From Chamaesiphon sp. 341R_metabat_111 (GTDB taxonomy: Bacteria > Cyanobacteriota > Cyanobacteriia > Cyanobacteriales > Chamaesiphonaceae): 42,834 nucleotides of DNA. The DNA lies in NCBI GenBank assembly GCA_025351825.1, contig JANXVE010000107.1:1-42834 (forward strand). Reading direction: 5' to 3'. Each line of letters opens with the position of its first letter. Within the stretch, counting starts at the first letter, position 1. Below are positions 4,765 through 37,594 of the stretch, in pieces. Made by a program: the position numbers and the translations under genes. The notes under the pieces are model-generated. The model saw nothing but the letters and a program-made list of their open reading frames with translations, searched no databases and was not told the DNA's origin.

Positions 4765-6669
4765 GTGAGCAATCAAGAATCAGTTTTAACCGAATTACTG
4801 CGACAAATGCCGCAATTGCGATCGCATTTGTACTTTAAGTCTTCCCTGACAGCACTGTCTCATGCCATGGAAGATCGGGTGCTGGCAGGAACGGATCGCC
4901 CTCTACTGATTGCTAGTTTTCAGCAAGAGAAGTTTTATCGCCAGGAAGCCCACCGTTATCGACGATTGGGCGAGATTAGCGACCAAGTATATGTGGTCGC
5001 GGCACCCGATACCAAATTCAGTGAGCTGGTGGAAGAGTATGAGCTGGTACCATTTGAGCCTGATGATGCACTGGGAAGTGAGTGGCATCTGATCGCCATC
5101 GGTGCTCAGTCGGCGGCTTGTCTGGTGTGTCGGGAAAAAGTTGGCACCCAATCAGAGGTTTCTGTGCTGCCGGAAATCGACCCGTCGCGGCGGTTTGAAG
5201 GGATCTGGACATTCGATCGACAAGTGACTATTGCCGCTGCTCATATTTTGCTCGATCGAATTCAGGGTTATCGACCAGAACTAGCCGCTAAAATCGCCCA
5301 GGCGAAGCAAGAATACCTGGTCGCGGTTCCAGGTATCCCCAATGACCATTCCGCTAGTGCTGATGCCTTTGTGCAGCGGCTGGTGACATATCTCCAGGCG
5401 CGGCAATATAAGTTGCTCAAGGCGTATAAATCGATCGAGGAAAAGGAAGAACGGGAGCGGTTGGTCAATTCAATTACAGGCGCGATTCGACGTTCGCTCA
5501 ATTCAGCAGATATTCTCCATGTAGCGGCATTAGAGCTAGGTAAAGCGACCAAAGTTAGTCGGTGCGTGATTTATCAGTATCGCCCAGACGAGCGTACCAC
5601 AACGATCGCCCATGAATATCTAGTCGATCGACAAGCCACTTCCCTGATTGGCAAATCCTGGAGTCTGGCTGAAAATCCCATTTTCAAATCAGTGATTAAA
5701 ACCCACGAATCAACCGCCCTTGCCGAAGTAAATATCACCAAAACTTGGCAGCGCACCCTTGATAAACACGGGATTACCGACTGGCTCATCGTGCCAGTGC
5801 TGCATCAAGATCGGATCCTGGGACTGATCGAACTACACCAACATCAATCTTCGCCCTTACCCTGGTCGGATGATACGATTAGCTTAGTTGAAGCGATCGC
5901 GACCCAGATCGGTAGCACCCTAATTCAAGCCGAATCTTATACCAACTTAGAATACCTCAACGAACAACTAGAGGCACTCGATCGCACCCGTGCCAATCTA
6001 GTCGCCATTACCGGACACGAACTCAGGACACCCCTCTCCACGATCCAAGTCTGCCTCGAAAGTCTGGCGACAGAACCAGACATGTCCCCCGAACTGCGCC
6101 AAGTCATGCTCAATACCGCCCTCGGCGATGCCGAACGGATGCGGAAACTCGTTCAAGACTTTCTCACCCTCTCCCAGCTTGAAAGTGGCCGGATCCAGTG
6201 GCACCCCGAACCCCTCTCCCTCGAAGAATGTATCGATCTGGCTCTGAGCGGCTTAAATAGTCGTCGTTACGATCGAGATCTACCCAAAATAGTCGTCAAT
6301 ATCCCCGCAGATCTCCCCTTTGTACGAGCCGATGGAGAATGGCTAGTCGAAGTCTTAACCAAACTCCTCGATAATGCCTGTAAATTCACCACTGGTCAAG
6401 ACCGGATCGGGATTGAAGCCTACAATGTCGAATCCATGCTCGAAGTAGTCGTCGCCGATACCGGACGCGGCATCGCCCCCGAATTATTACAGATGGTCTT
6501 TGAACGCTTCTATCAAGCCGAAGGTTCCCTGCGCCGCACTGCTGGTGGTACTGGCTTGGGACTCGCCATCTGTCGCCAAATCGTCAACGGTTGGGGCGGC
6601 GAAATCTGGGCAGAATCGGCGGGGAAGGATAGTGGGAGTAGGTTTCACTTTACGGTGCCAGCGATTTAG
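4765..6669 (+). CDS. DICT-GAF sensor histidine kinase
   Basis: A 634-residue hybrid of sensor and transmitter modules without membrane segments, so likely cytosolic. Order: a DICT-type sensory domain at about 10-175 (ALSHAMEDRVL near its start), a short helical linker, a GAF domain at about 240-395 (SVITxVxxYQYRPDE-like region, VPVLHQDRILGLIELHQH), a HisKA helix pair with the phospho-acceptor His418 in ITGHELRTPL, and an HATPase_c domain with N box LLDNACKF, G1 DTGRGI, F box FERFY and G2 GGTGLGLAI. All catalytic boxes are intact. DICT domains are known next to GGDEF, HD and histidine kinase modules, mostly in light-linked proteins. The gene starts with GTG at 4765, preceded by AGAAGGATAAATA. 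No response regulator is adjacent. Confidence 0.93.
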   Translation: MSNQESVLTELLRQMPQLRSHLYFKSSLTALSHAMEDRVLAGTDRPLLIASFQQEKFYRQEAHRYRRLGEISDQVYVVAAPDTKFSELVEEYELVPFEPDDALGSEWHLIAIGAQSAACLVCREKVGTQSEVSVLPEIDPSRRFEGIWTFDRQVTIAAAHILLDRIQGYRPELAAKIAQAKQEYLVAVPGIPNDHSASADAFVQRLVTYLQARQYKLLKAYKSIEEKEERERLVNSITGAIRRSLNSADILHVAALELGKATKVSRCVIYQYRPDERTTTIAHEYLVDRQATSLIGKSWSLAENPIFKSVIKTHESTALAEVNITKTWQRTLDKHGITDWLIVPVLHQDRILGLIELHQHQSSPLPWSDDTISLVEAIATQIGSTLIQAESYTNLEYLNEQLEALDRTRANLVAITGHELRTPLSTIQVCLESLATEPDMSPELRQVMLNTALGDAERMRKLVQDFLTLSQLESGRIQWHPEPLSLEECIDLALSGLNSRRYDRDLPKIVVNIPADLPFVRADGEWLVEVLTKLLDNACKFTTGQDRIGIEAYNVESMLEVVVADTGRGIAPELLQMVFERFYQAEGSLRRTAGGTGLGLAICRQIVNGWGGEIWAESAGKDSGSRFHFTVPAI

Positions 6670-32894: not shown

Positions 32895-34187
32895 ATGCAT
32901 CCGAATCTCTGGTATCCGTATACTCAGGCAAAAACGGCACCAGATCCGATCGAGGTGAAATCAGCACAGGGATTATGGTTAGAATTAGCCGATGGGCGCA
33001 AGATTGCTGACTGTATCTCTAGTTGGTGGGTAAATCTGCATGGACATGCTCATCCCCAGATTGTGGAGGCTATCGCACGTCAAGCAGCTCAGTTAGAACA
33101 CGTGATCTTTGCCGGATTTACCCACGCGCCAGCTCAAGAGCTAGCCAGTAAATTGGTGGCGAGATTGCCAGAGAATTTGACGCGAGTATTCTACTCAGAT
33201 AATGGCTCTACAGCGGTAGAAGTGGCCCTGAAGATGGCTTATCAGCACTGGGTCAATATTGGGACACCCCGTGGGCGGTTTATGTCCTTTGAGGGAGCCT
33301 ATCATGGGGATATGTTCGGGACGATGGCGGTGGGGACTCGATCGATCTTTTCAGATGTATTCAAAGATTTATTATTTGAGGTTGATTTTTGTCCCTATCC
33401 CGATACTTATGAGGGGGATTTACAGGTACTCGAACGAGAAGCTAATTGTCTCAAGTTAATTAGACAAAATTTGTTACTTCATCCTAATGATTACGCAGGG
33501 ATAATTATCGAGCCACTAGTTCAAGGTGTCGCGGGGATGCGGATCTGTAGACCTGAGTTCTTGCAGCAGTTGCGCGAACTAGCAATTGAGTTTGACACAT
33601 TCCTAATTTTCGATGAAGTCATGACTGGATTTGGTCGAACTGGAGCAGACTTTGCTTGTAACAAAGCACAGGTACAGCCAGATTTAATTTGCCTATCAAA
33701 AGGAATTACTGGTGGATTTTTACCACTAGCCGTGACCATCGCTACCGATCGGATTTATGATAGCTTTTATAGTGACGATCCGACCAAAACCCTCTATCAC
33801 GGACACAGTTATACTGCTAACCCCCTTGGCTGCGCTGCGGCTCTGGCATCTTTGGATCTATTGAGCAAAAATGAGCCAGTCTATACCAACATGGAAATTT
33901 GGCATCGCCAGCATCTAGCAACATTAGCCGCTAAATATCCCCAACTATCTAGATTCAGAGTAATGGGGACAATTTCGGCATTCGATGTGAACAATAGCGA
34001 AAAAAGTGGGTACCTTAATAATGTGGGAAGAGAAATCAGACACCATGCGATCGCGCATGGTGTCTTACTTCGTCCGCTTGGCAATGTACTTTATTTGATG
34101 CCACCCTACTGTATTACAAAAAATGAATTAGACTGGGTATATCAGCAAATCGACCGAGTTTTGGAAGATGTGATAGATCGATCGTAG
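32895..34187 (+). CDS. bioA: Adenosylmethionine-8-amino-7-oxononanoate aminotransferase
   Basis: A 430-residue class III aminotransferase that makes 7,8-diaminononanoate in biotin synthesis, with S-adenosylmethionine as amino donor. BioA features are the N-terminal LWYPYTQ, ISSWWVNLHGHAHP at 41-54, DNGSTAVEVALKMA, the PLP-contacting FDEVMTGFGRTG with Asp240, and the Schiff-base Lys269 in LSKGITGG. YHGHSYTANPL is also typical. Full length. Other bio genes (bioD, bioF, bioB) are not in the window. mysA follows 93 bp downstream on the same strand, but no functional link between biotin and mycosporine synthesis is known to me. Confidence 0.95.
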   Translation: MHPNLWYPYTQAKTAPDPIEVKSAQGLWLELADGRKIADCISSWWVNLHGHAHPQIVEAIARQAAQLEHVIFAGFTHAPAQELASKLVARLPENLTRVFYSDNGSTAVEVALKMAYQHWVNIGTPRGRFMSFEGAYHGDMFGTMAVGTRSIFSDVFKDLLFEVDFCPYPDTYEGDLQVLEREANCLKLIRQNLLLHPNDYAGIIIEPLVQGVAGMRICRPEFLQQLRELAIEFDTFLIFDEVMTGFGRTGADFACNKAQVQPDLICLSKGITGGFLPLAVTIATDRIYDSFYSDDPTKTLYHGHSYTANPLGCAAALASLDLLSKNEPVYTNMEIWHRQHLATLAAKYPQLSRFRVMGTISAFDVNNSEKSGYLNNVGREIRHHAIAHGVLLRPLGNVLYLMPPYCITKNELDWVYQQIDRVLEDVIDRS

Positions 34188-34280
34188 CTAGTAAAGATCG
34201 ATTGAACGTCTAAAATCGTGTTGAATAAAAATGAGAAATACGTTAACTTATGTATCTAAACATCACCGTGTAAGAATCTC

Positions 34281-35519
34281 ATGAGCGATATTCAAGCGAC
34301 TTTTACATCTACCGACCGCGCCTTCCATGTAGAAGGATATGAGAAAATTGAGTTCAGTCTGCTCTACGTAAATGGAGCTTTCAAGTTAGAGAACCCTGAA
34401 ATTGCCGATAGTTACCGCCAATTTGGACGCTGTTTGATGGTGGTAGACAAGACAGTGTATGGTCTGTATGGCGAACAGATTCAAGCCTATTTTATACACC
34501 ACGCGATCGACTTATCCGTATTCCAAGTTTCGATCAAAGAGCCTGACAAGACTTTGACGACTTTTGAGAGTGTCATCGACGCATTTGTTGATTTTGGGCT
34601 GGTTCGCAAGGAACCTGTGCTAGTTGTTGGCGGTGGATTGACAACCGATGTGGCTGGCTTTGCTTGCTCGACGTACCGCCGCAAGACTAACTACATTCGG
34701 GTACCGACTAGCTTGATTGGGCTAATCGATGCGAGTGTAGCGATTAAAGTTGCCGTCAATCACGGCAAGCTCAAGAATCGTCTCGGTGCTTATCATGCTT
34801 CCCAGAAGGTGATTCTAGACTTTTCATTCTTGAAAACCCTGCCGATCGATCAAATTCGCAACGGCATGGCAGAATTGATCAAGATTGCGGTAGTTGGCAA
34901 CAAAGAAATCTTTGAAATGCTAGAGAATCACGGCGAAGCACTACTAAAAAGCCACTTTGGTTATTTAGATGGCACTGTCGAACTCCAAGAAGTAGCTCAC
35001 AAGCTGACTTACAATGCGATTCAGTCGATGTTGGCACTAGAAGTACCCAACCTCCACGAGCTAGAACTCGATCGAGTAATTGCCTATGGACACACCTGGA
35101 GTCCAACTCTAGAGCTAACTCCAGAGATTCCGATGTTCCACGGACATAGCGTGGCGATCGATATGGCATTCTCAGCTACTATCGCCCAACAGCGCGGTTA
35201 CATCACCGTAATCGATCGAGATCGGATTCTCGGCTTGATGAGCCGGTTAGGATTGGCGATCGATAGCCCCTATCTGACCCCAGAACTGCTGTGGAAAGCA
35301 ACAACCTCGATCGCCCGTACCCGCGATGGACTACAGCGTGCAGCGGCTCCTTGCCCAATTGGAGACTGTTTCTTCATGAACGATCTGACTCGCACCGAAT
35401 TGGATGCAGTCCTCGCAGTTCATCATGAAGTTTGCCACAACTACCCTCGCAATGGTAACGGCGAGAATATGTATGTAGTTCTCGACCAAATGGCAACTCC
35501 CGAACCAGCAGGAGTATAA
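34281..35519 (+). CDS. mysA: 2-demethyl-4-deoxygadusol synthase (mycosporine pathway)
   Basis: A 412-residue sugar phosphate cyclase of the dehydroquinate synthase superfamily. It should convert sedoheptulose 7-phosphate into demethyl-4-deoxygadusol, the first committed step towards mycosporine-like sunscreens. The NAD site is [13 protein letters not shown] at about 115-127, and [14 protein letters not shown] and [15 protein letters not shown] follow. Predicted zinc ligands are Glu198 (GMAELIK), His271 (YGHTWSP) and His287 (MFHGHSV). The sequence, as remembered, runs closely parallel to the Anabaena variabilis Ava_3858 enzyme, including [26 protein letters not shown] and PIGDC. Two bases separate it from mysB, which supports this choice over the related valiolone synthase. 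Confidence 0.93.
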
Positions 35520-35521
35520 GG

Positions 35522-36325
35522 ATGCGACCTGTAACACCTGTCGGAATTCTGGCAGCTAAACTCGAAAGTCTCGTCCACCAATTGGCACAAATCGAGAGTC
35601 CCAATCCAACTTTCAAAGCTGAACTCCAGCAAGCTTATGAGTTGGCAAACGGACTCGATCCATATCTGGATCTCTGCACTACGCCAGAATCTCCAGCCCT
35701 AGCCGCACTCGTCAAACGCACCCAAACAGAAGATTGGACACAACGATTCTCCGACGGTGCGACGGTGAAGCCGTTGGAGCAGGAAATGCTCTCTGGGCAT
35801 GTGGAGGGGCAATTTCTCCAATTCCTGATCCACCTGACGAAGGCAAAACGAATCCTGGAAATCGGCATGTTCACGGGTTATTCAGCTTTAGCGATGGCTG
35901 AAGCCTTACCTGATGATGGTGTCGTAGTTGCTTGCGAAGTGGATGCTTATGCATCTGCGTTTGCCCAGAAGTGTTTCGACGCATCGACGGCTGGGAGTAA
36001 GATCTCGGTGCGAGTTGCGCCTGCACTGGAGACAATGCAGCAATTAGCGACGGCGGGTGAAGCATTCGATTTAGTCTTTATCGATGCGGATAAGGGTGGG
36101 TATTTAGCCTATCTAGATCTGCTGCTGACTAGCACTCTGCTTGCACCTGGGGGTTCGATCTGTGTGGACAATACGTTGATGCAGGGACAGCCTTATTTGC
36201 CAGGAGTAAGTACGGAACATGGAGATGCGATCGCTAAATTCAATCGTGCAGTCTGTGAAGATCCGCGTGTGGAGCAGGTTTTGTTACCATTACGGGATGG
36301 GATTACGCTGATTCGGCGGGTTTAG
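35522..36325 (+). CDS. mysB: O-methyltransferase making 4-deoxygadusol
   Basis: A 267-residue SAM-dependent O-methyltransferase of the caffeoyl-CoA O-methyltransferase-like fold. It methylates the product of MysA to 4-deoxygadusol. The SAM site is ILEIGMFTGYSALAMAEALP at about 111-130, with VACEVD next; the metal and catalytic region is VFIDADKGGY (Asp188, Asp190), then CVDNTL. The N-terminal helical part and the ending LLPLRDGITLIRR match the known cyanobacterial partner (Ava_3857). The gap to mysA is 2 bp (TAAGGATG), so the pair is translationally coupled. The expected third gene, an ATP-grasp ligase (mysC), does not follow. Confidence 0.93.
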   Translation: MRPVTPVGILAAKLESLVHQLAQIESPNPTFKAELQQAYELANGLDPYLDLCTTPESPALAALVKRTQTEDWTQRFSDGATVKPLEQEMLSGHVEGQFLQFLIHLTKAKRILEIGMFTGYSALAMAEALPDDGVVVACEVDAYASAFAQKCFDASTAGSKISVRVAPALETMQQLATAGEAFDLVFIDADKGGYLAYLDLLLTSTLLAPGGSICVDNTLMQGQPYLPGVSTEHGDAIAKFNRAVCEDPRVEQVLLPLRDGITLIRRV

Positions 36326-36370
36326 GCTATCTTAGATCTTGCACGGCGTAAGATTATTAGCGGTAAGTAT

Positions 36371-36493
36371 AGATCCGAGGATACCCATTAAGCGGCGTTT
36401 TTATGCGGGGGTTCCCACCGCATAAAAAAACGGTAAGACAGGGCACCCCTACAAGTTATCTGTAGGGGTGCCCTTAATGGGTACCCTGGATCT
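36371..36493. mobile_element. MITE-like element downstream of mysB
   Basis: Terminal inverted repeats of about 21 bp (36371-36392 and 36473-36493), identical apart from one extra base and one mismatch, with core TACCCATTAAG. Inside are two further hairpins: TTTTTATGCGG with CCGCATAAAAA, and GGGCACCCCTACA (36441-36453) with TGTAGGGGTGCCC (36461-36473). No open frame. It sits 46 bp after the mysB stop, exactly where mysC would be expected. Confidence 0.8.
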
Positions 36494-36544
36494 GCGCCGA
36501 TCGATAACCATTGTTAAACTGGTGTAAAATATGAATACGTCAGT

Positions 36545-37594
36545 TTACGATGCCTGTTGTAATGATGCCATATCGATCACAAAGCGATATTTAACATCGC
36601 TTTTTACCAATCGATCGTAGGCTCGATCGATCTCCTGAATTTGGATTAGTTCGATATCCGCAGTGATGTTATGCTTGCCACAAAAGTCTAGCATTTCTTG
36701 AGTTTCTTTGATGCCACCAATCAGGGAGCCGCTGAGGCTCCGCCGACCATAGATGAGGCTGCCTACATTGAGCGAAAGCGGTTCTGGTGGTACGCCAACC
36801 TGGGTTAGGTTGCCATCGAGTTTTAATAATAATAGATAAGCATTGATGTCGTGTGGTGCAGACACGGTATCGAGGATGAAATTGAAGCTGTTGAGCTGTT
36901 TTTTCATCTCATCGGCATTCTTGGAATTGACGACTTCATCTGCTCCTAGCCGCAACGCATCTTCCACTTTATTCGATGAGGTAGTGAACACCACGACATG
37001 CGCGCCCATCGCCTTCGCCAATTTTACTCCGACGTGACCCAATCCACCGAGTCCAACGACCCCAACCTTCTGACCTGGACTTACATTGTGATGGTGCAAG
37101 GGTGAATAGGTGGTGATGCCAGCGCAGAGCAGGGGAGCGGTGGCGGCGAGATCCAAGTTCGGGGGAATCTGCAATCCAAATGCTTCATCTACCACGATCC
37201 GTTCCGAGTAGCCGCCAAAGGTGATCCCGCCGAGATGTTTGTCTGGAGAGTTGTATGTAAATGTGGTGTCTGGGCAGAATTGTTCTAAGTCTCGCTCACA
37301 GTTGGCACAAGTACGGCAGGAATCGACCATGCAACCGACTCCAGCGGTGTCACCTTCCTTAAATTTTGTGACCTGCTCTCCCACCTTCGTTACCCGTCCC
37401 ACGATTTCGTGTCCGGGTACGCAAGGATAGGTTGTCCCACCCCATTCACCACGGACTGTATGCAAATCCGAGTGACACACGCCACAGTAGAGGATTTCGA
37501 TCTCAATATCGTGCTTGCCGACATCCCGACGTTGCAGGTTAAATGGTGCGAGTGGAGTCGTGGCGGTTTGAGCTGCGTAGGCACTAGTTTTCAT
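36545..37594 (-). CDS. Zinc-dependent NAD(P) alcohol dehydrogenase (CAD/YahK type)
   Basis: A 349-residue medium-chain alcohol dehydrogenase of the cinnamyl-alcohol dehydrogenase group, which reduces a broad range of aldehydes. The catalytic zinc is held by Cys40 (CGVCHSD), His62-Glu63 (PGHEIVG) and a Cys in PLLCAGITTYSPL. The structural zinc is held by Cys93, Cys96, Cys99 and Cys107. The nucleotide fold is VVGLGGLGHVGVKLAKA at about 183-199; the FTTSS that follows favours NADPH. It is convergent with mysB, separated by the MITE-like element, and is not an obvious part of the mycosporine pathway. Confidence 0.94.
   Translation of the reverse strand: MKTSAYAAQTATTPLAPFNLQRRDVGKHDIEIEILYCGVCHSDLHTVRGEWGGTTYPCVPGHEIVGRVTKVGEQVTKFKEGDTAGVGCMVDSCRTCANCERDLEQFCPDTTFTYNSPDKHLGGITFGGYSERIVVDEAFGLQIPPNLDLAATAPLLCAGITTYSPLHHHNVSPGQKVGVVGLGGLGHVGVKLAKAMGAHVVVFTTSSNKVEDALRLGADEVVNSKNADEMKKQLNSFNFILDTVSAPHDINAYLLLLKLDGNLTQVGVPPEPLSLNVGSLIYGRRSLSGSLIGGIKETQEMLDFCGKHNITADIELIQIQEIDRAYDRLVKSDVKYRFVIDMASLQQAS

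What the first reader, a model, noticed from the sequence alone, without database searches (positions are those of the whole stretch)
34281..36325. mysA-mysB operon without mysC, mysD or mysE
Seen: two tightly coupled genes for 4-deoxygadusol synthesis, followed by a MITE-like element and a convergent dehydrogenase. Known: cyanobacterial clusters usually continue with an ATP-grasp ligase that adds glycine, then a ligase or NRPS-like enzyme. Inferred: either the later genes are elsewhere in the genome, or this strain makes 4-deoxygadusol itself (a strong antioxidant and UV absorber), or a small element insertion split the cluster.
Basis: partly seen in the sequence, partly recalled or inferred. 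Interest (0 to 1): 0.6.

Follow-up and report, generated by a model that had tools for sequence, protein, structure and literature searches.

The report
Sunscreen gene cluster split at repeat
These are the first two genes of an ordinary cyanobacterial sunscreen pathway; the two genes that seemed to be missing are present on another piece of the same draft genome, and the break between the two halves lies in a repeated DNA element.

Summary
The two genes are real and exactly where stated: mysA (34281-35519) and mysB (35522-36325). That mysC and mysD are missing is true only of this contig. The window's own draft genome (202 contigs, same genus as Chamaesiphon) holds one mysC (92% identical to that of the nearest relative) and one mysD (90%), side by side on contig C111, and no second mysAB was found. 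C111 begins inside the same family of palindromic repeat that follows mysB here. The nearest relative (L002) has mysA-mysB-[short copy of the element]-mysC-mysD unbroken; four of the five other mysA-bearing genomes of the genus keep mysC downstream of mysB. So the ancestral cluster was mysABCD, and the halves part at the element: by recombination between copies, or by an assembly fault. Reads would decide. The MysD specificity residues (F-S) predict porphyra-334, already reported from Chamaesiphon; 4-deoxygadusol as end product is not supported. Separated mys genes are already in print. An apparent absence of aroB from this assembly is most likely a missing block of the draft. Ordinary pathway, mildly interesting break, low interest.

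The parts
34281..35519 (+). mysA, 2-demethyl-4-deoxygadusol synthase (sugar phosphate cyclase of the DHQ synthase superfamily), 412 aa
   Evidence: ORF; 5tpr_A E 7.1e-188 over residues 1-401; AroB model 181 bits, cut-off 305; 77 homologues of 62-96% identity, one of 25% dropped; 62 of those 77 have mysC close downstream
35522..36325 (+). mysB, SAM-dependent O-methyltransferase, 267 aa
   Evidence: PF01596 E 1.6e-51; 94% to L002; a member beside mysA in 71 of 79 stretches, two of which are the window itself
36328..36537 (.). dispersed palindromic (MITE-like) element with imperfect inverted arms of about 65 bases and two inner hairpins (36398-36428, 36440-36474); the place where the mys cluster breaks
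   Evidence: a shorter copy at the same place in L002, about 4821-4940
36545..37594 (-). zinc-type alcohol dehydrogenase, convergent with mysAB; matched in 9 of 9 genomes of the genus (this one included) and not beside mysAB in the eight stretches read from the others; bystander
32895..34187 (+). bioA upstream of mysA (bystander; reduced to a C-terminal remnant in L002)
   Evidence: TIGR00508 539 bits, cut-off 405

Best explanation
A complete, ordinary mysABCD pathway of a Chamaesiphon-type cyanobacterium, seen in two pieces. Shown: mysA-mysB on this contig; one mysC-mysD pair on contig C111; both halves bordered by copies of one dispersed palindromic element; and the nearest relative with the halves joined across a short copy of that element. 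Inferred from the known pathway: MysA cyclises sedoheptulose 7-phosphate, MysB methylates the product to 4-deoxygadusol, MysC adds glycine, MysD adds a second amino acid. Inferred from published specificity rules: MysD (F-S pair) prefers threonine, so the product is porphyra-334 (334 nm) and not 4-deoxygadusol. Inferred, less sure (about 0.55-0.6): the halves were parted by exchange between two copies of the element (mysB-element-mysC with C108 block-element-dehydrogenase); the alternative is an assembly break or misjoin at the same repeat.
For: mysC C111:255-1643 (92%, residues 1-463 of 463, E 1.8e-300); mysD C111:1792-2820 (90%, residues 1-343 of 344, E 4.5e-210); no second mysAB. C111 begins in the element family (at least bases 1-155) and mysC starts at 255. 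C111's first 139 bases equal the end of C108 and the start of C109, so the contig stops at an exact repeat. L002: mysA-mysB-element-mysC-mysD. Genus: 6 of 9 genomes have mysA; of the five besides this one, four show mysC downstream (L002, L012, L076, L175) and in the fifth the contig ends inside mysB (L021). Wider: mysC within 3.5 kb downstream in 62 of 77 loci (6 too short to tell, 2 with mysC upstream on the other strand, 7 without). MysD specificity pair F-S, with Nostoc KVJ20 reading L-A as published (PMC11983340 sections 6 and 7). Porphyra-334 in three Chamaesiphon species (PMC5928177, passages). For a real exchange: in G002 the C108 gene block lies next to the dehydrogenase in matching orientation, one gene between (L161); the window's element shares at most 51 identical bases with the 65 own-genome loci compared, some of them overlapping, which is short for a misjoin.
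Against: The exchange is not proven: no reads, a draft genome. C108 could continue into C109 instead of C111; C109 and C111 share 141 leading bases while C108 ends after 139 of them, so C108 is not a clean graph neighbour. In G004 the genes of C108 do not adjoin the dehydrogenase on that side (L166). I saw no copy of this element beside the dehydrogenase in relatives; the repeats there (L167, L168) are of another kind. The gene after mysD also differs between C111 and L002 by eye, so more than one change has taken place. The product is predicted from two residues only, and enzyme activity is untested.
Confidence: 0.87

Rival explanations
1. The split is only an assembly artefact: the chromosome reads mysB-element-mysC-mysD, and the assembler joined mysB to the wrong flank (the dehydrogenase) at the repeat. 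The pathway conclusion is unchanged.
For: C111 stops inside an exact 139-base repeat shared with two other contig ends; the nearest relative has the joined order; the family is dispersed.
Against: The window runs through its element without a break, and that copy shares at most 51 identical bases with the copies compared, 19 with C111 and 35 with the end of C108; a misjoin would need a short word. An exact search for 99 bases of the C111 repeat found C108, C109, C111 and an internal place in C14, not C201.
Confidence: 0.4
2. 4-deoxygadusol is the end product: MysA and MysB act alone as an antioxidant pathway.
For: No mysC or mysD match on the window contig (searches list none on C201).
Against: Open mysC and mysD in the same genome, contiguous with mysAB in the nearest relative.
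Confidence: 0.03
3. mysC and mysD on C111 come from a contaminating organism, so the strain has only mysAB.
For: The assembly is scored 1.97% contaminated. C111's mysC and mysD are a little less like L002 (92%, 90%) than the window's mysA and mysB are (96%, 94%).
Against: The C111 repeat belongs to the family dispersed over many other contigs of the same assembly; only one mysA and one mysC are present, as one organism would give.
Confidence: 0.03

Closest known systems
Cyanobacterial mysABCD clusters (Nostoc punctiforme type; MysD, a D-Ala-D-Ala-ligase-like enzyme)
   Same: The same four enzymes; mysA-mysB adjacent, mysC followed by mysD; the whole order kept in the nearest relative
   Different: mysAB and mysCD lie on different contigs, each bordered by a palindromic repeat
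Non-clustered mys genes in Brazilian cyanobacteria (PMC9918943; passages and section 5 seen)
   Same: mys genes present but separated in the genome
   Different: There low-identity genes are scattered, with spaces over 15 kb, and correlate with no detectable product; here two tight pairs of high identity
Porphyra-334-forming MysD of Chamaesiphon minutus and C. polymorphus (PMC11983340; passages and sections 6 and 7 seen)
   Same: Same genus, serine at the second specificity position
   Different: Phenylalanine instead of methionine at the first (the F-S pattern, tested there in Nostoc enzymes)

Membership tests
MysA / 2-demethyl-4-deoxygadusol synthase | Full-length similarity to the solved cyanobacterial enzyme, far above that to DHQ synthases | tested here: met
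   5tpr_A E 7.1e-188 against 7.9e-32 for the best ordinary DHQ synthase; identity of 5tpr recalled
MysA / 2-demethyl-4-deoxygadusol synthase | Metal-site and glycine-loop motifs of the superfamily kept | tested here: met
   Motifs starting at residues 116, 196, 268 and 285, aligned to 5tpr; their role is recalled
MysA / 2-demethyl-4-deoxygadusol synthase | Turns sedoheptulose 7-phosphate into 2-demethyl-4-deoxygadusol | not testable with these tools
   Needs an enzyme assay
MysB / O-methyltransferase | Methyltransf_3 protein encoded directly after mysA | tested here: met
   PF01596 E 1.6e-51; 2-nt gap
mysABCD gene cluster | mysC and mysD present in the genome | tested here: met
mysABCD gene cluster | All four genes co-linear | tested here: inconclusive
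   Two contigs, one of them broken at a repeat; co-linear in L002
mysE-type cluster | NRPS-like MysE present | tested here: inconclusive
   20 matches, 27-53% per piece, best protein (C120) 36-43%; four MysE candidates share 54-84% (domains checked for one)
MITE | Short, no ORF of 60 aa or more, inverted ends, dispersed copies | tested here: met
MITE | Target-site duplication and a parent transposase | not tested
   No call made for it

The most novel reading that the evidence does not exclude
In this assembly, scored 99.58% complete, MysA is the only protein of the 3-dehydroquinate synthase superfamily that the AroB model finds below E 0.1; a MysA query likewise shows MysA but no AroB in two other mysA-bearing assemblies of the genus (G003, G008). 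Read boldly, MysA could here stand in for AroB and feed the shikimate pathway, which would reopen the old link between that pathway and these sunscreens. The conserved neighbour of aroB was not found either, so a missing block of the draft is far likelier.
Probability: 0.02. Interest if true: 0.7.

Novelty: new member of a known kind. Interest (0 to 1): 0.15.

Why it matters
Mostly as a caution: half a cluster on one contig of a draft genome is not half a pathway. One paper reports 'MysC not found' in a metagenome-assembled lineage (PMC10438808, passage), the kind of statement that a check across contig ends would firm up. If the split is physical, this strain and its near relative form a natural pair for asking whether co-linear mys genes are needed for sunscreen production, as PMC9918943 suggested from ten strains.

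Tried and rejected
4-deoxygadusol end product: rejected, mysC and mysD found. Second full cluster: not found. Loss of aroB: the AroB model rings in 14 of 14 control genomes (over its cut-off in 9) but in this genome gives only MysA and two pieces on C197 at E 0.14 and 0.27. In five of the six genus genomes where aroB was read, a nitrilase-like gene (my label, no domain search made) and a gene of 1127-1270 aa flank it; in the sixth (L174) they do not. The nitrilase-like query from G004 (93-96% identical in the four relatives compared with it) found nothing here at E 1e-20 (no positive control was run, and the tool warns that an empty answer alone shows nothing); the large protein gave 36 partial matches, none over 42% identical. 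So the block is missing from the draft, or deleted; MysA as replacement was set aside. The idea that the dehydrogenase carries the same element in relatives was dropped: the repeats in L167 and L168 are of another kind. Rfam gave no match over 34000-37000 up to E 1. Promoter and terminator scans were not above the shuffles (1 found against 3.6, 2 against 1.9). MysE stayed inconclusive. A paper search for cyanobacterial MITE recombination listed 2 papers, neither to the point by title and start of abstract.

Full report
Observation. The first aligns over its first 401 residues with PDB chain 5tpr_A at E 7.1e-188, against 5.7e-78 for 4p53 and 7.9e-32 for the best ordinary DHQ synthase, and falls short of the curated cut-off of the AroB model (181 of 305 bits). 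The second is a Methyltransf_3 protein. They are mysA and mysB. The window is given as contig C201, bases 1-42834, of a 4.06-Mb genome in 202 contigs, scored 99.58% complete and 1.97% contaminated.

The missing genes. With mysC and mysD of the nearest relative (L002, Chamaesiphon sp. CAN_BIN19, MysA 96% identical) as queries, the window's own genome gives one mysC, C111:255-1643, 92% identical over all 463 residues, and one full mysD, C111:1792-2820, 90% (four further matches at E 6.7e-6 or worse). Both are open frames, with a weak ATP-grasp and a clear D-Ala-D-Ala-ligase domain. No second mysAB was found. For MysE the search gave 20 matches of 27-53% per piece, 36-43% for the best protein, where four MysE candidates from other genomes share 54-84%; this is inconclusive, and MysE is not needed beside MysD.

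Where the cluster breaks. C111 begins in a palindromic repeat and reaches the mysC start codon at base 255. The window has a member of the same repeat family directly after mysB, with imperfect inverted arms at 36328-36392 and 36473-36537. The family is dispersed: 99 aligned pieces (3 of them the window's own) from 40 of 151 candidates scored with the window copy, and 65 (one its own) from 40 of 148 with the C111 copy. In L002 a short copy stands between mysB and mysC, with mysD following. C111's first 139 bases are identical to the end of C108 and to the start of C109; C109 and C111 share 141; a fourth exact copy of 99 of these bases is internal to C14. So the contig ends at an exact repeat. 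The window's own copy shares at most 51 identical bases with the 65 own-genome loci compared (some overlapping), 19 with C111 and 35 with the end of C108.

Real split or artefact. In the relative G002 the gene block of C108 lies beside the dehydrogenase in the orientation that an exchange [mysB-element-mysC] x [C108-element-dehydrogenase] would need, with one gene between (L161). In G004 it does not (L166). None of the eight dehydrogenase stretches read from relatives showed mysA or mysB. The gene after mysD differs between C111 and L002 by eye. I put a physical exchange at about 0.55-0.6 and an assembly misjoin at about 0.4; either way the pathway is complete.

How usual is the arrangement. 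Of 78 loci found with MysA, one at 25% identity (L079) was dropped. Of the other 77, 62 have mysC within 3.5 kb downstream, 6 end too soon, 2 carry mysC upstream on the other strand and 7 have none in the DNA held; 6 of those 7 also show no mysB there. In the genus 6 of 9 genomes have mysA: this one; four with mysC downstream (L002, L012, L076, L175; in the one of L076 mysA itself lies in pieces on two contigs, one with a stop inside); and one whose contig ends in mysB (L021).

Product. Two omega-loop residues largely decide MysD specificity (PMC11983340, passages and sections 6 and 7 seen): enzymes with L-A made more shinorine, those with F-S and M-S more porphyra-334. In my alignment Nostoc KVJ20 reads L-A as published, L175 reads M-S, and C111 reads F-S. 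[quoted passage not shown] The prediction is porphyra-334.

Literature. PMC9918943 (passages and section 5) reports co-linear and separated mys genes and found constitutive product only with co-linear ones, so separated mys genes as such are in print. Five paper searches were run; by titles and starts of abstracts none describes this locus, which is a statement about those listings only.

A side lead. The AroB model finds only MysA in this genome, plus two pieces at E 0.14 and 0.27, and a MysA query, which picks up AroB in other genomes, finds none in G003 or G008 either. In five of six genus genomes read, aroB sits between a nitrilase-like gene and a large gene; no match to the first (without a positive control) and no close match to the second was found here. 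A block missing from the draft is the plain reading; MysA as a stand-in is kept only as the novel case at 0.02.

Noticed in passing
G000 whole genome; L169, L170, L171, L172, L173 for the conserved aroB neighbourhood: No aroB found in this assembly of 99.58% scored completeness, nor its conserved nitrilase-like neighbour; G003 and G008 also show MysA without AroB. Probably a missing block of the draft.
   Followed up: partly
L053 188-4792: A mysA-mysB-mysC cluster (a mysD-like frame follows) on a contig labelled Patulibacter, 70-83% G+C per kb, with MysA 70% identical to the window's: possible transfer from cyanobacteria with adapted base composition.
   Followed up: partly
L061, L064, L065, L067, L075: Five Calothrix-type loci carry a MysA homologue (62-65%) with no mysB or mysC in the DNA held, each beside the same convergent gene of 311-312 aa. 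What an orphan MysA does there is open.
   Followed up: no
L002 2404-2676; window 32895-34187: bioA, intact in the window, is reduced to a C-terminal remnant in the nearest relative.
   Followed up: no
window 36328-36537; L119 1-155; L130 1480-1740; L177 1-154: By eye the repeat family is modular: different inner hairpins joined by short AAGACA-type links, in varying number between similar ends.
   Followed up: partly
L052, L056: Rhizonema/Scytonema loci with two mysC-like genes on the opposite strand about 5-8 kb upstream of the mysA start.
   Followed up: no
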